A stretch of DNA of 64,000 nt from Spirochaetota bacterium (GTDB taxonomy: Bacteria; Spirochaetota; Spirochaetia; Treponematales; UBA12059), in NCBI GenBank assembly GCA_018262985.1, contig JADFDI010000013.1, positions 1 to 64,000 on the forward strand. The letters run 5' to 3'. The notes below the pieces were generated by a model, which saw nothing but the letters and a program-made list of their open reading frames with translations, did not search any database and was not told where the DNA came from. The number at the start of each line of letters is the position of its first letter. Position 1 is the first letter of the stretch. A program made the translations under genes and the position numbers. Below, in pieces: positions 14,507 to 25,002 of this stretch.

Positions 14507-15727
14507 CTATTCGTAGCGCAGGGCTTCTATCGGATCGAGACGCGACGCCCGGAAGGCCGGGTAGCCGCCGAAAAAGAGGCCGGTGACGAGGCTGAAGGCG
14601 AAGGCGAGGACGATCGAGCCCGCGCTGACCCGGGCGGCCATGCCGCCGAAGCGCGAGAAGGCCCAGGCGGCCGCCACGCCCGCCGCGATGCCGAGCGCGC
14701 CGCCCGAGACCGAGAGCAGGACGGCCTCGACCAGGAATTGCGCGAGGACGTTGCCCGGCTTCGCGCCGAGGGCCATGCGCACGCCGATCTCGCGGGTGCG
14801 TTCGGTGACGGACACCAGCATGATGTTCATGATGCCGATGCCGCCCACCACGAGGCTGATGGCCGCGATGCCGCCGAGCAACAGGGTGAAGGTGCCGGCG
14901 GTGCCCTGCGCGGCGCCGAGCACGTCGAGCTGGTTGGCCACGTAGAAGTCCGCCGCGTCCATCGACGGCAGCTTGTGCAGGCGCAGAAGCTCGGCCTCGA
15001 TGGCGGCCTGGGCTTCGCGCATCAGTCCCGAGTCGACGGCCTGCACGTTGACGGCCGCGTACTTGGTCCCTCCGGAGACGCTCCGGAGGAAAGCCGTGAT
15101 CGGCACCCAGACCTGGGCGTCGGTCATGTCGTTCCCCTTGGATTCCATGACGGCCACGACGGTGAAGGGCAGGCCGTTCAGGCGGATCTTGGCCCCGATC
15201 GGGTCGACGTCCGGGCCGATGAGGTCGACGGCGGCCTTGCTGCCGAGCGCCGCGACCATGCGGCGGGAGTCGACCTCGGCCTCGCCGAAGAATTCGCCCG
15301 CCTCCGGGTAGTGGTTGCGCACCGCGGGGTAGTTCGAGTCGGTGCCGACCACGGTGACCGGCGAGTTGCGGTTCTCGAACTTGGCCTGCACGCTCGCCGA
15401 CGATTCGGGCGAGGTGACGGCCACCAGGTCCAGCGCCGCGATGGCCTCGAGGTCGTCCGCCGTCAGGGTGGGCACGATGTTGGACGTGTTGCGGCGGACG
15501 AGGGCTGTGCCGCGCGCTTGGCCCGAATAGACGATGAGCAGGTTCGAGCCGAGGCTCTTGAGGCTCTCCTCCACCGCCAGCGAGGCGCCGTTGCCGAGGG
15601 CGGTCAGGGCTATCAGGCTTCCGGCCCCGATCAGGACGCCGAGCGTGGTCAGGAAGGAGCGCCCCAGGCTGCCGCGGATGCTCTTGAGCGCCATGCCGAA
15701 GCTCTCTCCCAGTACGCGCATCTTCAT
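14507..15727 (-). CDS. MacB-like ABC transporter permease
   Basis: 406 residues of the MacB/FtsX permease type: an N-terminal membrane segment ([22 protein letters not shown]), a periplasmic MacB-PCD-like domain of about 200 residues, then three C-terminal membrane segments with FtsX signatures ([20 protein letters not shown] followed by [10 protein letters not shown]). It should move substrate by mechanotransmission between the adaptor and the ATPase. Unlike E. coli MacB the ATPase is a separate polypeptide, overlapping upstream by four bases. The C-terminus [12 protein letters not shown] is typical of the family. Confidence 0.93.
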
Positions 15728-16431
15728 GCCGACTCCCCGGCGGGACCGTCCGCCACGATGAGTCCGTCGATGATGCGCACGACCCGCGGCGCCTGGCGCG
15801 CGATGCCGAGGTCGTGGGTTACGAGGATGATGGTCGCGCCGTCCGAATGCAGGGCGGCGAACATCTCCAGGATCTCGGCGCCGGTCTTCTGGTCGAGGGC
15901 GCCGGTGGGCTCGTCCGCCAGGAGGACCGAGGGCTTGCCGGCCAGGGCCCGCGCTATCGCGACGCGCTGCCGCTGGCCGCCTGAAAGCTCCGCAGGCAGG
16001 TGGTGCTCGCGGCCGGAGAGTCCCACCCGCGAAAGCATCTCGCGGGCGCGCTCCCGGCGCTCGGCCTTCGGCGCGCCTGAGTACACGAGGGGCAGTTCGA
16101 CGTTGCCGAGGGCGTCGAGTCGGGGCAGCAGGTTGAAGCTCTGGAAGATGAAGCCGATCTCGCGGTTGCGGATCTCCGCGAGGCGGCCCCGGGAAAGGCC
16201 CTCGACCGGCTCTCCGTTGATGCGGTAGGAGCCGTCGGTGGGCGTGTCCAGGCAGCCGATGATGTTCATGAGGGACGACTTGCCGGAGCCGCTCGGCCCG
16301 ATGATCGAGACGAACTCGCCCTTGCGTACCTCGAACGAGACGCCGTCGAGCGCGCGCACCGTCGTCGGTCCCATGACGTAGTGGCGCTTGATGTTCTCGA
16401 GCGCCATGACCGGATGCTCGAGCGCGCTCAT
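15724..16431 (-). CDS. ABC transporter ATP-binding protein, MacB/LolD type
   Basis: 235 residues with complete nucleotide-binding motifs: Walker [11 protein letters not shown]-loop [20 protein letters not shown], signature [15 protein letters not shown], Walker [13 protein letters not shown] and switch His in VTHDL. The stop of the adaptor gene upstream and the start of the permease gene downstream each overlap it by four bases, so the three are translationally coupled. It energises the efflux or lipoprotein-export pump. Confidence 0.95.
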
Positions 16432-17642
16432 CGCGTGCCTCCGCCCGAACCGGGCACGCTGATCGGGATGATCGAGGTGCCCGTCGAGGACTTGTCCGCC
16501 GCGGCGGGCGCGGCGACCGGGGCGGCGCCCGGCAACACCACGAGGGCGCCCGCCTCGAGCCCCTCGGTGACGACGACGTTGCGCCCGTCGCCCGTGCCGA
16601 TTTCCACTCGGACGGTCTCGACCGTCCCGTCCTCCCCGACCACGTCGACGTAGGAACGGTCCCGGACCGTGGTCACGGCCTTGAGCGGGATGACGACGCC
16701 TTTCTGGGAGCTGACCTGGATGACGACGTCCGCGCCCATGCCGGGACGGAGCTCGAGTTCCGCGTTGTCGACCACCACGCCGACCCGGAAGACGGCGATC
16801 GAGTTGACCACTTCGGCGGAGGGGCTGATCAGCTCGACCCGGGCCCGGAACGAGCGGTCCTCGAGGGCGGGCACCGTGATGGTGGCCGGGAGGCCGGTCC
16901 TGACCTTGCCGATGTCGTACTCGTCCACCTCGGCCCGGAACAATATGCGCGAGGAATCCACCACCGAGACGATCTGCGAATTGGCGGGCGCGAAGTCGCC
17001 GGCCTGGAACGCCGAGCGCGCGACGAGGCCCGCGAAGGGGGCGCGGAGCGTCGCGGCCGCGAATTCGGCGCGAGCTCGCTCGAGGGACAGGGCCGATTGT
17101 TCGACGGAGACCTCGGCGGCCCGGCGGGCGTACTCCGCCGAGGCGAGGGCTTCGGCGGCGGCGTCCACCTGCTCCTGGGTGGCGGCCTTCGCGGCGAAGA
17201 GCGAGCGCTTGGAGTCGAGCTCGGTCCGCGCCCGCGTTTCGGCGGACCGGGCCTTTTCCAGGTTGATGCGCGCCTGCTGGAGGGCCAGCTCGTCGGCGGA
17301 GAGGGCGGAGCGGAGCTCGCCGTCGTCCATGACGACGACCGGATCGCCCGCCGCTACGGCGGCGCCCTCGGCGGCGGTCCAGCGGACGTAGCCGGCCGCG
17401 CGGTTGCGCAGGGTGACGGACTGGATGGGCTCGGCGACCGAGATGGCCTGGACCGCGACGGCGACCGTGCCGTTCGCCGCTTCGACCGTGAGCGGGCCGG
17501 CATCGGCGGCCGCTTCGCTCGAGCCGTCGCCGCGTAGCAGGAGCCAGGCCCCGAGGCCCAGGGCGACGAGGGCCGCGGCCCCGACGATGATGACCGTATT
17601 CCTCTTCTTCGCTTTCCTGGCCTTGTCGGCGTGATCGCTCAT
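16428..17642 (-). CDS. HlyD/MacA-type periplasmic adaptor
   Basis: 404 residues: cytoplasmic Lys-rich N-terminus ([10 protein letters not shown]), one membrane anchor ([20 protein letters not shown]), lipoyl-like half, a coiled-coil hairpin at about 110-185 ([20 protein letters not shown] and onward), the second lipoyl half ([14 protein letters not shown]), then beta-barrel and membrane-proximal domains. The C-terminus carries an unusual Ala/Pro and Ser/Thr/Gly-rich extension ([19 protein letters not shown]). It connects the TolC-like channel to the MacB-type permease. Overlaps both neighbours by four bases. Confidence 0.92.
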
Positions 17643-18997
17643 GGCTGTACCTCGTTGATTTCAGCGGGATGGCGCGCGGCGATGGCCGCGGCGAGTCGGG
17701 CGCGCTCGGCGTCGACGGCGCGGGCGAGCGCCTGGTAGGCGGCCCGGTCGGCGTCGATGCCGGCGCGGAGCAGTTCGGATTCGGTGGCGCCGCCCGTCGC
17801 CGCGCGCGCCTCCATGGTCTCGAGGGCCGAACGGGCGATGCTTTCGGCTCGCAGCGCCTGTTCGGCCGCGTCGGCGGCCCGCACCCAGGCCTGGTAGGCC
17901 AGGCGGACCTCGACGCCGTACAAGGCGAGCTGGTTTTCGAGCCGTGCCCGGGCCGCGAGGAGTTCGAGCTCTAGGCTCGCCGAGGAGCGTCGGTCCGCGC
18001 CGCCCGAGTCGAGCGCTATGGTGGCTGAAGCCGTCAGGGTCCAGGGCGTGGGCGCGAGGGTCGTGCCTTCGAGCGGGAGGGACGCGGCGCCGCCCGCGGA
18101 AAGCCGCGCCGTATCGGAAGCCCAGGCCAGCGAGGCCGAGAGCCCGTCCTTGGCGCCGGACACGCGCGCGCTGAAGGCTGGATCGAAGGCGCGGGCGTCC
18201 GCCAACTCGCGTTCGAGGAGCTCGAGCTCGGCGAGGGCCTTCCGCGCGTCGGGATCGCGCGCCTGGGCGCTCGCGGCCAGGTCGGCCGCCCGGGGCAGGG
18301 TGCCCGGCTCCAGGTCCGGCATGGCCAGCGCCTCGCCGTCGTCGGCCAGGCCGAGCCAGGCGAACAGCTCGAGGCGGCTCACACGGGAGAGCATGGACGC
18401 GTGGAGCTGGTCGTCGATGGTTCCGAGCAGGGCTTCCTCGGCCTTGCGGTACTCCGCGTAGGAAAGTCCGCCGGCTTCGAAGCGCGCCTTGGCGGAGGCG
18501 AATTCGCGTTCGGCCGCGTCGAGCTCGCGGAGCAGCAGGGCCGCCTCCTCCTGCGCTTTCCAGGCGTCCGCGTAGAGCGAATAGGCCTTGAGCCGGAGGG
18601 CCGCGAGTTGCCATTCGAGGTTCGCCGCCGCCCAGTCCGCCTGGACTCCGGCCGCCTCGGCGCGGGCGCGGGCAGCCTCGGTCAGGCCCAGGGGCGCCGA
18701 GAGACTGAGGCCGAGTTCGACCGTGGAGCTTTTCGCGACGCCGAGCGCTTCCTCCGCGATCCGCTTGACGGCGGGATCGAAGGAGAGCCGCAGGTCGCCG
18801 GGGTAGGCGGCCTCGCGGTACTGGGCTTCGGCGTACCCGGCGAGCGCCAGGGCCGTACGGGCTTCCGCCGTTTCGGCCGAGCGGTCCAGCGCCGCCGCGA
18901 GGTCCATGGATCGGGCGGCGGGCATGAGAGTTGCCAGCAGCAGGGCGGCGCCCAGGGAGGCGGAGGGCGGCAAGGCGGCGTGCAGGGTTCGTTTCAT
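17639..18997 (-). CDS. TolC-like outer-membrane efflux protein
   Basis: 452 residues with a signal peptide ([20 protein letters not shown] onward to PAARS) and long Ala/Glu/Arg-rich helical hairpins typical of outer-membrane efflux proteins, in two related halves. It forms the exit duct for the ABC pump encoded after it. ATG 18997 is preferred over GTG 19003 because GAGG lies five bases upstream. It is the first gene of the five-gene minus-strand operon, next to an AT-rich leader. Confidence 0.88.
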
Positions 18998-19003
18998 AAG
19001 CAC

Positions 19004-19080
19004 CTCGCTGCCATTACTGCAACAAGCGTGCCACGAAATGGGAAGAGGGGAAATATATGAAATAATCTATGTAAAAGGCC
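19004..19080. other. AT-rich leader region upstream of the efflux operon
   Basis: 19040-19078 is rich in A and T (AAATATATGAAATAATCTAT and following), in contrast to the very GC-rich surroundings, and lies directly upstream of the TolC-like gene. It probably holds the operon promoter, but no clear -35/-10 pair with normal spacing could be assigned. Confidence 0.4.
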
Positions 19081-19126
19081 TCCGAAGAGGGCCGGCCGCG
19101 GCGCGGCGCGGCTCGGTCGCTGATCC

Positions 19127-19226
19127 GTCGGGGCAGGATCTGCCCGACAGGTTGACCCGGGCGGCAGGAATTGCCCGGGCGCGATCCGCAGGAGCCGGCC
19201 GGACTGGCTGGCCCGCCAGGCTCCTA
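19127..19226 (-). terminator. Cluster of stem-loops after the ZIP-cNBD gene
   Basis: Three inverted repeats in a row: GTCGGGGCAGGA/TCTGCCCGAC (19127-19148), CCCGGGC/GCCCGGG (19156-19179) and AGGAGCC/GGCTCCT (19190-19225, reaching the ZIP gene stop). The first two share a GGCAGGA-TTGCC core. They could end minus-strand transcription, although none has a T run. Confidence 0.4.
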
Positions 19227-20522
19227 GCCGGCCACGCGGAGGAAGACCGCCGACACGAAGCCGAGGATGGTGGCCATGCCGGTGATGGAGCCGCCCTGCT
19301 CGAAGGCCTCGGGCATCATGGTCTCGGCGAGCATGGCCAGCATCGAGCCGGCGGCCAGGCTTTCGAAGAGCGCCACGAGCTCGGGCGGCGCCGAGCGGAA
19401 GGCCAGGTTGCCGAGCGCGGCGCCGACGGCGGTGAGCAGCACGATGGAGCCCCAGAGCAGGCTGACCCGGCGCACCGACATGCCGAGCTTCCGCATGCCC
19501 ACCGCGCTCGAGAGCGCCTCGGGGTAGTTGGCGATGAAGAGCCCGAGCACGAGCGCGAGGCTCGCCTTCTCCGCGCCGATCATGGACGCGCCGATGACCG
19601 CCGACTCGGGGATGCCGTCGAGGAGGATGCCGAGCCAGATGGCCATGGGCGCGCCTCCCGCCTTCTTTCCCCCGGCCTCCGCCAGGGCTTCGTCGAGCTC
19701 GAGCGAGCTCGGGCGCCAGTCGCCTCCTCCGGCCTTGCGGGCCCAGGCCTCCGGGTCGACGGACGCGGCCGCCTTCTCGAGGGCTTCGCGGCGCTCGCCG
19801 GAGAGCGCGTGCACCGCCGCCCTGAGCTCCGGGTTGGCGTCGAGAAGGCGGTCGAAGTCGGCCTTGCGGAGCGAGAGGAGCGCGGTCTCGTCGAGGGCGG
19901 TCACGTCGGCGGTCCGGGTCTCCCCGCTGAGCAGGGCCATTTCGCCCACCATGTCGCCCGGGCCGAGCGTGGCGAGCGTCGAACCCGAGCGCGACACCTC
20001 GAGGCGTCCCGCCTCCACCAGGTAGAGCTCCGCGCCGGCCTCGCCGGCCGCGATGACGCGGGTGCCCGAGGGGCAGCGCAGGCGGCGCACCTGGACGGCC
20101 AGGCCGCGCATGGCCTCGGGCGGGAGGCTGGCGAAGAGGGGCACGCGCGCGAGGCTCTCGAGGAGCAGGCGGACGTCGCGGCGGCGGTCCGCGCGCAGCC
20201 GCCGCTGCAGGGTCGAGCGCTTGCGGAGGAAGCCGCCCGCGTCGTTCACGAGGCGGTTCAGCGCGACGAACATGAGCCCCCCGGCGACGAGCCCGAGGCC
20301 GACCGGCCAGAACCCGCCCTCGAGACGCTCGACCGCCTCGCCCACGAGCTCGAGCGAGAGCGCCGCGAAGAGGGCTCCCGCGCCGAAGGCCATGATGCCC
20401 GCCGCGAGCCGGGGCGGCGGCTTCAGGAAGGCCCCGGTCCACGCGCCGAGGAGCAGGCTGGCGGCGGAAAGCGCGCCGAAGCTGAACGCCGAGAATGCCT
20501 GGGACAACGCCGTACCGCTCAT
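19224..20522 (-). CDS. ZIP-family metal transporter with inserted cyclic-nucleotide-binding domain
   Basis: 432 residues in three parts. Residues 1-95 carry three membrane helices of a ZIP-like transporter. Residues about 120-235 form a cNMP-binding domain, with a phosphate-binding cassette GEMALLSGETRTADV that keeps the key Arg. Residues about 290-432 carry the remaining helices, with ZIP metal-site-like motifs LLDGIPESAVIGAS and FIANYPEALSSAVG. The usual ZIP His residues (HNxPEG) are replaced by Asp and Asn, as I recall for a subfamily of bacterial ZIP-like proteins. The domain order suggests divalent-metal flux gated by cAMP, cGMP or a related ligand. GGGGAGG precedes the ATG. Confidence 0.85.
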   Translation of the reverse strand: MSGTALSQAFSAFSFGALSAASLLLGAWTGAFLKPPPRLAAGIMAFGAGALFAALSLELVGEAVERLEGGFWPVGLGLVAGGLMFVALNRLVNDAGGFLRKRSTLQRRLRADRRRDVRLLLESLARVPLFASLPPEAMRGLAVQVRRLRCPSGTRVIAAGEAGAELYLVEAGRLEVSRSGSTLATLGPGDMVGEMALLSGETRTADVTALDETALLSLRKADFDRLLDANPELRAAVHALSGERREALEKAAASVDPEAWARKAGGGDWRPSSLELDEALAEAGGKKAGGAPMAIWLGILLDGIPESAVIGASMIGAEKASLALVLGLFIANYPEALSSAVGMRKLGMSVRRVSLLWGSIVLLTAVGAALGNLAFRSAPPELVALFESLAAGSMLAMLAETMMPEAFEQGGSITGMATILGFVSAVFLRVAG

Positions 20523-20673
20523 GCCGCCTCCCCGTGCTCTCCCCGCCTAGTTTCGCGTTTCGGGAGGAGCCGCGCCAGAGGCCTCGCCCGCCCGGGCTCC
20601 CGGCTTCGAGGCGCCTGAGGAGGGCGCGTCGCCTGTCCGCGTACCCGGGTTTCCGCGACGGTTCGCGCCGAAT

Positions 20674-20708
20674 GAAAAAGGCCGGGCCCCGCGCGGGGAC
20701 CCGGCCTT
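20674..20708 (-). terminator. Intrinsic terminator of the FMN-binding protein gene
   Basis: On the minus strand, AAGGCCGGGTCCCC GCGC GGGGCCCGGCCTTT forms a 14-bp stem with one G-U pair, followed by a T run (TTTTTC). It lies 21 bases past the FMN-binding gene stop. Confidence 0.87.
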
Positions 20709-20729
20709 CGGCCTTTCCGGCCTGGCGCC

Positions 20730-21641
20730 TTACTTGCGCGCGTTGATCAGCTGCTGGGCCAGGGCCAGCTTGTAGGCGGCCTGGAGCTCGAGGGCGTAGT
20801 GCGGGAAGTCGGAGAAGGTGGCGCCGGTGACGGCGTCGGCGACGAAGAAGACCGAGTCGTCGGCCGCGGTGAAGGCGGCGGCGTCGGCGAGGTCGACCGC
20901 CTTGTCGGCGACGATCTTGAGCGGGGTCTTCGCCTTGGCGACCGCGTCCGCGAAGGGGGCGAGCGGGTTGGCCATGAAGAAGTCGACGGTGGCCTTCATG
21001 TTGTAGCGGTAGCCGATGGTGGCGGCGCCGATGGGCATGTAGGTGGCCTTCGGGTTGGCCTTGTCCATGTGGCCGTAGTGCACGGTCTCGGAGGCCTTCT
21101 TGCCCACGGTGACCTTGAGCCCGTCGATGGTGACGTTGACCAGGGTGTTGGCCTTGGCGGCGGCGACGTAGGCGGCGGCGCGGATCGGGTTGCCCATGAG
21201 GCCCTCGAAGTCGCGCTCGTACTGGCGGGTCGGGCGGGCGAAGGCGTCCTTGCCGGGGGTGTACTGCGACCAGACGCCGAGGCCGTCCTTCACGTTGTAG
21301 ATGTAGAACATGTAGCCCTTGATCTCGGGATCGGCGTTGCCGGTGTTCGCGAGCGGGTCCGGCACGCGGACGACGGCGCCGTCGACGACCGACTTGCCGT
21401 CCTCGGAGTTGTACGCGGCCCAGCCGCCGGGACCCTGCCACTCGTGCACCTCGGCGGTCTTGACGGATCCGTCGGGGTTGACCGTGACGACGGCCTCGCC
21501 GATGTAGCCGCCCTGGTGGGCGACGAAGTACTTGACCGCGGTGGCCGGCCCGAGGGCGGCGCCTTCCTTGGAGCCCATGGCGCCGGCGAAGCCGGCGAAC
21601 GCGACGAGCGCGAGCGCGAAGAGGACGATCTTCTTCATCAT
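20730..21641 (-). CDS. Secreted FMN-binding-domain protein
   Basis: 303 residues. N-terminal signal peptide (MMKKIVLFALALVAFAGFAG) without a lipobox Cys. Two FMN-binding-like blocks follow: GGYIGEAVVTVNPDGSVKTA near residue 43 and, near the C-terminus, DAVTGATFSDFPHYALELQA. VTGATFS resembles the [D/S]xxxGAT motif in which Thr takes covalent FMN via ApbE in Rnf/Nqr and secreted flavoproteins. A soluble extracytoplasmic redox role is therefore likely, but covalent attachment is inference; no ApbE gene is in the window. GGAGG fits ATG 21638 slightly better than ATG 21641. Confidence 0.82.
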   Translation of the reverse strand: MMKKIVLFALALVAFAGFAGAMGSKEGAALGPATAVKYFVAHQGGYIGEAVVTVNPDGSVKTAEVHEWQGPGGWAAYNSEDGKSVVDGAVVRVPDPLANTGNADPEIKGYMFYIYNVKDGLGVWSQYTPGKDAFARPTRQYERDFEGLMGNPIRAAAYVAAAKANTLVNVTIDGLKVTVGKKASETVHYGHMDKANPKATYMPIGAATIGYRYNMKATVDFFMANPLAPFADAVAKAKTPLKIVADKAVDLADAAAFTAADDSVFFVADAVTGATFSDFPHYALELQAAYKLALAQQLINARK

Positions 21642-23089: not shown

Positions 23090-24079
23090 ATGTTCGGAAT
23101 CATCGGAGCATACGCGGTCGCGCTCGTCGCGATCCTCACGTTCTTCAGGCTGATCGTCGTGGTGCCGGAGCAGAAGGCCTACGTCGTGCAGTTCCTCGGC
23201 AAGTACCGCAGGACGCTCGGCTCGGGCTTCCACGTGCTCCTGCCCTTCCTCGAGAAGGTGGCGTACAAGCACTCGCTCAAGGAGGACGTCATCGACGTGG
23301 AGCCGCAGGTGTGCATCACCGCGGACAACGTGCAGGTGTCGGTCGACGGCATCCTCTACTACAAGATCTTCGATCCGGCGCTCGCGAGCTACGGCATCGA
23401 CGACTACCGCTTCGCCACCATACAGCTAGCGAAGACCACCATGCGCTCCGAGATCGGCAAGCTCGAGCTCGACCGGAGCTTCCAGGAGCGCGAGACCATC
23501 AACGACAACATCGTCAAGGCGGTGGACGAGGCGACGGACCCCTGGGGCATCAAGGTGACCCGCTACGAGGTCCGCTCCATCACGCCGAGCGCCGTCATCA
23601 CCGAGGCCATGGAGCGCCAGATGCGCGCCGAGCGCGAGAAGCGCGCGGAGATCCTGGCGTCGGAAGGCGTCAAGGAAAGCCGCATCAACGTCTCCAAGGG
23701 CGAAAGGCAGGAGGCCATCAACCTCTCGATGGGCGAGCGCACGCGGCGCATCAACTCCGCCGACGGCCGCGCCGCCGCCATCACCACGGTGAGCGAGGCG
23801 ACCGCCGAGGGCCTCAAGCTGGTGGCCGACGCGCTCGCCGCGCCCGGCGGCAAGGACGCCATGACCTTGCGCCTCGCGGAGCAGTACGTCGAGCGCCTCG
23901 GCGAGATCCTCGGCTCCTCGACGACCACGGTGCTGCCGGGCAGGCTCGCCGAGCTCAAGGGCGTGGCCGAGCTGCTCGGCCTCGGCGGCGCCGAGCGGGT
24001 GCCGCTCGAGAGCGTCCCGGATTTCGGCCGCGACAAGGTCCGCGCGGCCCTCAAGACCCGCGAAGGAGGCCAGGCGTGA
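23090..24079 (+). CDS. SPFH/stomatin-prohibitin family membrane protein 1
   Basis: 329 residues with an N-terminal membrane anchor and a full SPFH domain (VVPEQKAYVVQFLGKYRRTL and GFHVLLPFLEKVAYKHSL). A long charged helix follows, with repeats of the type GERQEAINLSMGERTRRINSA. Similar to QmcA/stomatin proteins that oligomerise on the inner membrane. AAGGAGG lies just upstream of the ATG. The stop overlaps the GTG start of the paralogue by four bases. Confidence 0.92.
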   Translation: MFGIIGAYAVALVAILTFFRLIVVVPEQKAYVVQFLGKYRRTLGSGFHVLLPFLEKVAYKHSLKEDVIDVEPQVCITADNVQVSVDGILYYKIFDPALASYGIDDYRFATIQLAKTTMRSEIGKLELDRSFQERETINDNIVKAVDEATDPWGIKVTRYEVRSITPSAVITEAMERQMRAEREKRAEILASEGVKESRINVSKGERQEAINLSMGERTRRINSADGRAAAITTVSEATAEGLKLVADALAAPGGKDAMTLRLAEQYVERLGEILGSSTTTVLPGRLAELKGVAELLGLGGAERVPLESVPDFGRDKVRAALKTREGGQA

Positions 24080-25002
24080 GCGCGCTGATTCCCCTGTTCG
24101 TCATCGTCGGCCTCTTCGGCCTCGTGTTCGCCATCCAGATCCTCCGCTCCATCCGCGTCATCCCGGCGCAGTCCGCCTATATCGTGGAGCGGCTCGGCAA
24201 GTTCAAGGGTACGCTCGACGCGGGCTTCCACGTCCTCATGCCCTTCGTCGACCGCGTGGCCTACAAGCTCAACCTGAAGGAGCAGGCCATCGACGTGCCG
24301 AGCCAGGAGTGCTTCACGGCCGACAACGTCAAGGTGCACGTCGACGGCGTCCTCTACCTCAAGGTGGTGGATCCGAAGCGCGCCTCGTACGGCATCACCG
24401 ACTACCGCTTCGCGAGCGTGTGCCTGGCCCAGACCACCATCCGCGCCCTGATCGGCAAGCTGGTGCTCGACAAGACCTTCGAGGAGCGCGGCACCGTCAA
24501 CGCCGCCGTGGTGCGCGCGGTCGACGAGGCCGCCGGTCCCTGGGGCGTCAAGGTGACGCGCTACGAGATCCAGAACATCAAGGTGCCCGACTCCATCCTC
24601 AAGGCCATGGAGCTCCAGATGAAGGCCGAGCGCGACAAGCGCGCGGAGATCGCCCGCTCGCTCGGCGAGATGGAGTCCAAGATCAACTACTCCCAGGCGG
24701 CCATGGAGGAGGCGATCAACAAGAGCGAGGGCGAGAAGGAGCGCATGATCAACGAGGCCCAGGGCCAGTCGGCGGAGATCCTCGCCGTGGCCAAGGCGAC
24801 CGCCGCCTCGATCCGCGGGCTCGCCGGCGCCCTGACCCTGCCGAACGGCGCCGAGGCGGCCGGGCTCCGCGTGGCCGAGTCGTACATGGAGTCGCTCCGC
24901 AGGCTCAAGGAGGGCGGGACGCGCATCGTGCTGCCCCTCGACCTGGCCGATCCCGAGGCCATCACCGCCAACGCCTCGCGGCTGCTCGGGAAGAAGTCCT
25001 GA
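24076..25002 (+). CDS. SPFH/stomatin-prohibitin family membrane protein 2
   Basis: 308 residues, paralogous to the preceding protein and closer to the classical stomatin/QmcA pattern: RVIPAQSAYIVERLGKFKGT, then LDAGFHVLMPF, and a helix with KSEGEKERMINEAQGQSAEI. The start is GTG 24076, overlapping the previous stop, with GGAGG about nine bases upstream. The tandem pair, with NfeD upstream, suggests a hetero-oligomer like prokaryotic HflKC-type rings. Its stop (TGA) shares one base with the Nudix start. Confidence 0.92.
   Translation: MSALIPLFVIVGLFGLVFAIQILRSIRVIPAQSAYIVERLGKFKGTLDAGFHVLMPFVDRVAYKLNLKEQAIDVPSQECFTADNVKVHVDGVLYLKVVDPKRASYGITDYRFASVCLAQTTIRALIGKLVLDKTFEERGTVNAAVVRAVDEAAGPWGVKVTRYEIQNIKVPDSILKAMELQMKAERDKRAEIARSLGEMESKINYSQAAMEEAINKSEGEKERMINEAQGQSAEILAVAKATAASIRGLAGALTLPNGAEAAGLRVAESYMESLRRLKEGGTRIVLPLDLADPEAITANASRLLGKKS

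What the first reader, a model, noticed from the sequence alone, without database searches (positions are those of the whole stretch)
19224..20522. Metal transporter with a cyclic-nucleotide-binding domain inserted in the membrane domain
A cNMP-binding domain with an intact phosphate-binding cassette is placed between helix 3 and helix 4 of a ZIP-like protein, where ZIP proteins have their variable cytoplasmic loop. The helix 4/5 metal motifs are DGIPES and NYPEA instead of His-based ones. This suggests metal flux gated by a second messenger.
Basis: partly seen in the sequence, partly recalled or inferred. Interest (0 to 1): 0.55.

Follow-up and report, generated by a model that had tools for sequence, protein, structure and literature searches.

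The report
Metal transporter with inserted cyclic-nucleotide sensor
A bacterial membrane protein of the zinc-transporter (ZIP) fold carries a cyclic-nucleotide-binding domain spliced into the loop that links its fixed and moving halves; the same design occurs in many bacterial phyla and suggests metal flux switched by cAMP or cGMP, which remains to be tested.

Summary
The gene at 19224-20522 (minus strand, 432 aa) encodes an eight-helix ZIP-fold protein with a complete CNBD between helices 3 and 4. A confident AlphaFold2 model (pLDDT 89) matches BbZIP (Z 25.6 over 229 residues) and, in the insert, CNBDs of channels and kinases (Z about 17). It is no artefact: 80 homologues from public genomes of many phyla keep the architecture, and the 81 fused proteins form one clade (96.5/98) beside unfused 'DGIPES' ZIPs, so one insertion probably occurred. 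Against BbZIP, the transport-site glutamates (E181, E211) are kept, His177 is Asp in 81 of 81, and the second metal site and the M3 regulatory-site residues are replaced. In BbZIP that same loop is an autoregulatory element; here a CNBD stands in its place, joining scaffold helix 3 to transport-domain helix 4. Most likely it is a second-messenger-gated metal transporter (inferred, not shown). Against a simple gating story: 20 of 81 homologues, in four lineages, have lost the cassette's Arg (five also its Glu) while keeping the domain. Cargo, ligand and sign of control are unknown. New variant of a known kind; my literature searches found no description.

The parts
19224..20522 (-). Whole gene: ZIP-fold membrane protein with inserted CNBD, 432 aa
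   Evidence: Pfam; AF2; fold match
20523..20533 (-). Shine-Dalgarno-like GGAGG just upstream of the ATG
   Evidence: read directly from the sequence; inference
20424..20516 (-). Helix 1 (residues 3-33)
   Evidence: DSSP of AF2 model
20325..20414 (-). Helix 2 (37-66) with E58, acidic (E/D) in 81 of 81 fused homologues, at the BbZIP S106 position
20241..20309 (-). Helix 3 (72-94), scaffold helix that leads into the insert
   Evidence: scaffold role by analogy with BbZIP (PMC9278863)
20148..20240 (-). N-terminal linker (95-125), very basic (10 K/R, 3 D/E), G96 and R100 invariant in 81 of 81
19833..20147 (-). Cyclic-nucleotide-binding domain (126-230)
   Evidence: PF00027 E 2.3e-19; VIA-align Z about 17 to HCN4, PKG and MloK1 CNBDs
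19905..19952 (-). Phosphate-binding cassette (191-206) with G193, E194, R203
19659..19832 (-). C-terminal helices and linker (231-288) with W260, invariant in 81 of 81
19584..19655 (-). Helix 4 (290-313)
19602..19619 (-). DGIPES motif (302-307) in place of HNxPEG; D302 and E306 81 of 81
19488..19559 (-). Helix 5 (322-345)
19515..19529 (-). NYPEA motif (332-336); N332 and E335 81 of 81
19398..19475 (-). Helix 6 (350-375); T364 at the BbZIP E240 position
19293..19385 (-). Helix 7 (380-410); E400 and T401 at the BbZIP H275 and E276 positions
19230..19286 (-). Helix 8 (413-431); R429 (K or R in 55 of 81) at the BbZIP D305 position

Best explanation
A divergent ZIP-fold elevator transporter for a divalent metal whose activity is set by a cyclic mononucleotide. 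SHOWN by computation: ZIP fold, CNBD fold, site of insertion, a single fused clade, kept carboxylate/amide residues on helices 4 and 5 (D302, E306, N332, E335). INFERRED: the CNBD sits in the cytoplasm (basic flank, BbZIP topology) and bridges the fixed scaffold (helix 3) and the moving transport domain (helix 4), so that the hinge movement of the C-terminal CNBD helices on cAMP or cGMP binding changes the balance of the inward- and outward-facing states. It thereby replaces the metal-feedback loop (IL2 with the M3 site) of ordinary ZIPs by second-messenger control. The cargo is probably a divalent ion bound at a single carboxylate-rich site (Mn2+, Fe2+ or Mg2+ as likely as Zn2+). Whether nucleotide opens or shuts it, I cannot say.
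For: ZIP fold: Z 25.6, rmsd 2.3 A over 229 residues to 7z6m, all top eight rows BbZIP, model pLDDT 89.4, pTM 0.78. CNBD: (HCN4 Z 17.0, PKG I Z 17.0, MloK1 Z 16.6). 81 of 81 fused homologues keep D302, E306, N332, E335; 61 of 81 keep both E194 and R203. One clade, 96.5/98. Both parts under purifying selection: dN/dS 0.09-0.24 in the insert, 0.06-0.17 in the membrane part, six pairs of four sequences. In BbZIP the helix 3-4 loop IL2 carries metal-binding His and regulates the cycle (PMC11549095, passages); helices 2, 3, 7, 8 are scaffold and 1, 4, 5, 6 transport domain (PMC9278863, passages). The BbZIP M3 residues D144 and E276 are N89 (N in 60 of 81) and T401 (81 of 81) here. The genome has 14 class III cyclase-domain hits; the six cores that my script picked out of eight fetched loci carry K[YF]IGD. 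49 of 50 homologue genomes tested have class III cyclases.
Against: No binding or transport was measured. 20 of 81 homologues in four lineages lack the complete cassette (R203 to H in 15, A in 3, Y and P once each; five of the 20 also lost E194) yet keep the domain, W260 and the metal-site residues, so the domain has some role without canonical nucleotide binding there. My prediction that such genomes lack cyclases failed: 19 of 20 have them. Cyclases are also in all 43 relatives without the fusion, so their presence alone is no support. HNxPEG and most BbZIP metal ligands are replaced, so metal transport itself is not secured. No shared gene neighbourhood across lineages.
Confidence: 0.5

Rival explanations
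1. The domain is a structural or assembly module (dimer contact, folding, or partner docking) in an otherwise unregulated transporter; nucleotide binding is ancestral and optional.
For: Cassette lost in four lineages (20 of 81) with the domain, its length (181-212 residues between positions 104 and 291) and W260 retained. W260 is invariant in both intact (61 of 61) and degenerate (20 of 20) proteins, which points to a job independent of nucleotide.
Against: Where intact, the cassette is the better conserved part of the domain (mean commonest-residue frequency 0.68 for 191-206 against 0.52 for 126-230) and it drops to 0.52 in the degenerate set (partly by construction, since E194 and R203 define the sets). 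Genomes of the intact set have more cyclases (median 6 in 30 against 3 in 20, p 0.0014; not corrected for kinship).
Confidence: 0.25
2. A transceptor or sensor: the ZIP fold senses an outside metal or proton state and the CNBD relays it or integrates it with cAMP, with little or no net transport.
For: Second metal site gone (N178 to G303, E240 to T364), M99 to L51, Q207 to A/S331; an acid at the BbZIP S106 position (E58, E/D in 81 of 81) and K/R at D305 (55 of 81) suggest a changed pathway.
Against: E181, E211 and the helix 4/5 prolines are kept; no output enzyme domain is attached; no conserved partner gene.
Confidence: 0.15
3. The domain binds another small ligand than cAMP or cGMP (another cyclic nucleotide, haem, or other effector as in the CRP/FNR superfamily).
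For: R203 replaced by His in 15 of 81; domains of this fold are ligand-diverse (recalled).
Against: Window protein and 61 of 81 have the canonical Gly-Glu-Arg cassette, and the best PDB sequence hits are cGMP kinases, a PKA regulatory subunit and MloK1.
Confidence: 0.1

Closest known systems
BbZIP (Bordetella bronchiseptica ZIP, GufA subfamily; PDB 7z6m, 5tsa, 8ght)
   Same: Eight-helix ZIP fold, Z 25.6 over 229 residues; E181 and E211 kept; D208 position is Asn
   Different: H177 to D, N178 to G, Q207 to A, E240 to T, M99 to L, D144 to N, E276 to T; helix 3-4 loop is a folded CNBD of about 190 residues instead of an 18-residue metal-binding loop
Unfused 'DGIPES' ZIPs (annotated 'ZIP family zinc transporter' or hypothetical, e.g. 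Deinococcus, Rhizobium, Pantoea, Haladaptatus plasmids)
   Same: Same DGxPES and NxPE-type motifs, same Arg (R100) after helix 3, 41-49% identity over helices 4-8 for the four used
   Different: About 250 aa, short loop, no CNBD
CNBD-gated K+ channels MloK1, SthK, HCN
   Same: CNBD with flanking helices coupled to a membrane gate (fold match); intact cassette
   Different: CNBD is C-terminal to a channel pore; here it is inserted inside an elevator-type fold
SulP transporter with STAS and C-terminal cNMP domain (seen in L090)
   Same: A transporter that carries PF00027
   Different: Domain appended at the C terminus, another transporter family

Membership tests
ZIP (PF02535) metal transporters | Eight-helix ZIP fold | tested here: met
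   AF2 model against BbZIP Z 25.6, rmsd 2.3, 229 residues
ZIP (PF02535) metal transporters | Profile match to Pfam Zip over the gathering score | tested here: inconclusive
   Window protein 9.9 bits against 35.1; L030 35.4, just above; L043 24.2; L087 none
ZIP (PF02535) metal transporters | HNxPEG-type His/Asn metal motif on helix 4 | tested here: not met
   DGIPES; D302 in 81 of 81, G303 in 77 of 81
ZIP (PF02535) metal transporters | Bridging and M1 glutamates E181 and E211 | tested here: met
   E306 and E335, both 81 of 81
ZIP (PF02535) metal transporters | Divalent metal transport | not testable with these tools
   needs a flux assay
Cyclic-nucleotide-binding domain (PF00027) | CNBD fold and profile match | tested here: met
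   69.6 bits against 27.5; structural matches
Cyclic-nucleotide-binding domain (PF00027) | Phosphate-binding cassette with Glu and Arg | tested here: met
   E194 and R203 in the window protein; 61 of 81 in the family
Cyclic-nucleotide-binding domain (PF00027) | Binding of cAMP or cGMP | not testable with these tools
   needs ITC or equilibrium dialysis

The most novel reading that the evidence does not exclude
An old, phylum-crossing class of second-messenger-gated metal elevators: a single insertion replaced the metal-feedback loop of a ZIP transporter by a cyclic-nucleotide switch that couples the scaffold to the moving domain, and several lineages later lost nucleotide control while keeping the clamp.
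Probability: 0.4. Interest if true: 0.75.

Novelty: new variant of a known kind. Interest (0 to 1): 0.55.

Why it matters
Direct control of a metal transporter by cAMP or cGMP would link second-messenger signalling to metal homeostasis at the protein level, where bacteria are known mainly to use metal-sensing transcription factors (recalled). It would also give a natural handle on the elevator cycle of ZIPs, the fold of the human SLC39 zinc importers: a soluble ligand could push the transporter between states. The natural series (unfused, fused with intact cassette, fused with lost cassette) is a ready-made experiment on how a regulatory domain is acquired and later decoupled.

Tried and rejected
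Chance ORF or fusion artefact: rejected, 14 of 58 relatives hold a full-length copy and 80 loci of the genome scan align over nearly the whole length. Two long ORFs that overlap the gene (18906-20618 plus; 18994-21441 minus) look like the usual high-GC frame shadows; not pursued.

Conserved operon: ORF clustering of up to 6 kb flanks of the 80 loci (666 ORFs) showed no family beside the gene across distant lineages; the largest cluster (14 loci) is dominated by ABC-type ATPases at various distances. The MacAB-TolC genes next to it in the window recur beside it only in L024, its 95%-identical homologue; elsewhere only MacB-type ATPase matches of 28-48% identity appear.

Cyclase co-occurrence as proof of gating: weakened. 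All 58 relatives have class III cyclases. Counts are higher in fusion genomes (median 14 in 15 genomes against 5 in 43, p 1e-7; within the same family 14 in 13 against 12 in 10, p 0.005), but kinship and genome completeness are not corrected. The prediction that lineages with a lost cassette lack cyclases failed (19 of 20 have them).

A sequence profile of four unfused members against PDB sequences found no ZIP; the own-genome ordinary ZIP finds BbZIP at about 3e-35 and was used to map positions. Foldseek alone listed only CNBD proteins in its top 50; BbZIP came out by the second alignment.

Literature: searches for ZIP or zinc/metal transporter together with cyclic-nucleotide or cNMP terms gave no paper on such a fusion (one search lists a Toxoplasma kinase paper, two rice stress reviews, metal-uptake papers; listings only). 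Subscription papers are mostly not held, so a description elsewhere is possible.

Unfused DGIPES relatives in the tree come from plasmids only. Rows dropped: the G002 contig-edge fragment from A1; L031, L040, L045, L063 from A2; L184 (no ORF found by my pattern) and L186 (partial) from the tree.

Full report
What is there. The minus-strand ORF 20522 to 19224 encodes 432 residues from an ATG. A GGAGG lies four bases upstream (read by eye). Pfam finds a cNMP-binding domain at 149-230 (E 2.3e-19) and only a weak Zip match (E 0.54). The genome (3.4 Mb, 22 contigs) has this as its only full-length copy; the other ten hits in it cover only the CNBD region, apart from one ordinary ZIP on contig 15 with HNIPEG and QNFPEG motifs.

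The ZIP assignment. For the window protein alone sequence profiles are inconclusive, but the homologue L030 passes the Pfam cut-off (35.4 against 35.1 bits), and four unfused relatives score 8e-5 to 1e-7 for Zip and 7e-8 to 1e-13 for ZupT, all under the curated cut-offs. The AlphaFold2 model built on 77 sequences has mean pLDDT 89.4 and pTM 0.78. VIA-align 2 puts eight BbZIP entries first (Z 23.4 to 25.6, rmsd 2.2-3.1 A, 215-247 residues aligned); CNBDs of HCN4, PKG I, AKT1, MloK1 and SthK follow at Z 16-17 over about residues 105-247. The insert is therefore between helix 3 (72-94) and helix 4 (290-313), preceded by a strongly basic stretch (10 K/R, 3 D/E in 95-125) that fits a cytoplasmic side.

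Distribution and history. Among 58 relatives 15 have a match, 14 of them full-length. In 296 Spirochaetota genomes nine full-length copies and one contig-edge piece were found; the remaining hits lie in the CNBD region. Record titles name Spirochaetes, Nitrospirae, Nitrospinae, Planctomycetota, Elusimicrobia, Rokubacteria, Latescibacterota, Bacteroidetes, Gammaproteobacteria, Deltaproteobacteria, Bdellovibrionales, Gemmatimonadetes, Omnitrophota, Chloroflexi and Armatimonadetes, among others; the titles are of metagenome-assembled genomes. A tree of the membrane domain alone (99 sequences, 240 columns) groups the 81 fused proteins (window protein plus 80 loci) in one clade (SH-aLRT/UFBoot 96.5/98), next to 11 unfused DGIPES-type proteins (joint node 95.9/98), with classical HNxPEG ZIPs as the root. 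One insertion is the simplest reading, with the sampling limits stated under Tried and rejected.

The metal path. Position mapping runs through the own-genome ZIP, which matches BbZIP at about 3e-35, and the membrane-domain alignment. BbZIP to window protein: E181 to E306 and E211 to E335 (81 of 81 each); H177 to D302 (81 of 81 Asp); D208 to N332 (81 of 81); N178 to G303; Q207 to A331 (A or S); E240 to T364 (T in 64 of 81); M99 to L51 (81 of 81); S106 to E58 (E or D 81 of 81); D305 to R429 (K or R 55 of 81); D144 to N89 (N 60, D 12, S 8, A 1); H275 to E400 (E 61, Q 19, D 1); E276 to T401 (81 of 81). BbZIP roles of these residues are from PMC9873690 (passages), PMC9278863 (passages) and PMC11549095 (passages). 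The M1 site would be carboxylate-rich without His or Met, M2 is lost, and the M3 site that in BbZIP ties the helix 3-4 loop to metal is changed too. The 12 unfused DGIPES relatives share most of these changes, so they probably precede the insertion.

The nucleotide site. The window protein has G193, E194 and R203 of the phosphate-binding cassette. Across 81 fused proteins 61 have both E194 and R203; 20 do not: R203 is His in 15, Ala in 3, Tyr and Pro once each, and E194 is also lost in 5 of them. On the tree these fall into four groups (Lysobacterales; other Gammaproteobacteria; Bacteroidetes and near; L100 alone), with four changes by parsimony, the root state being ambiguous. G172, G193, W260, R100 and the four metal-site residues D302, E306, N332, E335 are invariant in both sets. 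The insert is under purifying selection in the window's close relatives (dN/dS 0.09-0.24). So most lineages keep a canonical pocket, and those that lost it still keep the domain. This is the strongest result against reading the domain only as a nucleotide gate.

Supply of messenger. The genome has 14 class III cyclase-domain hits. In six of eight fetched loci my motif search found the catalytic core; all six carry K[YF]IGD, whose Lys is typical of adenylyl cyclases (recalled), and four of the six gave the partner motif, with Thr (three) or Ser (one) at the partner position. Class III cyclases occur in 49 of 50 homologue genomes tested against 5 of 14 control genomes, but also in all 58 relatives whether or not they have the fusion, so presence does not discriminate; counts are higher with the fusion, uncorrected for kinship.

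How it most likely works. In BbZIP helices 2, 3, 7, 8 form the fixed scaffold and 1, 4, 5, 6 the moving transport domain, and the loop between helix 3 and helix 4 is a regulatory element that folds on metal and stabilises the inward-facing state. The insert occupies this loop, so any movement between its two ends, such as the hinge of the C-terminal helices on nucleotide binding known from other CNBDs (recalled), acts directly on the elevator. I commit to second-messenger gating of a divalent-metal elevator as most likely (0.5), with the domain as structural clamp (0.25), transceptor (0.15) and other ligand (0.1) as rivals. Cargo and sign of control are open.

Novelty. ZIPs, CNBDs and transporters with CNBDs are known. 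[quoted passage not shown] I rate it a new variant of a known kind.

Noticed in passing
L066:5257-5964, L077:1950-2660, L087:5233-5943, L091:5224-5934: In four Bacteroidetes loci, all with a lost cassette, a membrane-protein gene with an HTxxGPDHxLP motif ends 19-46 bases upstream of the fused gene; the two scanned (L066, L087) match DsbD_2, L066 also NicO weakly: a likely operon with another possible metal transporter.
   Followed up: partly
L090:3696-5804, L094:3566-5785: Divergent from the fused gene in two gammaproteobacterial loci lies a SulP-like gene; the L090 copy has a STAS and a C-terminal cNMP-binding domain, so two CNBD transporters sit side by side.
   Followed up: partly
L195:965-1729, L197:959-1726, L194:1001-1750: Unfused DAVPEA/DGIPEA ZIPs on plasmids lie directly after methionine sulfoxide reductase genes msrA and/or msrB, hinting at a role in oxidative stress, perhaps manganese.
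   Followed up: no
L183, L186: Spirochaetota ZIP-like proteins with a third motif set (DFLPEA or DFVPEA, QNxPEG, DIAPQS); L183 sits on a long branch outside the DGIPES group.
   Followed up: no
window 14507-19003: MacB-like permease and ATPase, HlyD/MacA-like adaptor (by eye) and an outer membrane efflux protein (PF02321) in a row just downstream of the fused gene; the row is found beside it only in L024.
   Followed up: partly
window 23090-25002: Two tandem stomatin/SPFH-like reading frames after an NfeD-like one (recognised by eye).
   Followed up: no
L072, L080, L085, L103, downstream of the fused gene: Lysobacterales loci share a 441-456 aa gene 74-141 bases downstream (L085:7424-8749 scanned: weak LpxK match E 7e-6 under the cut-off).
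   Followed up: no
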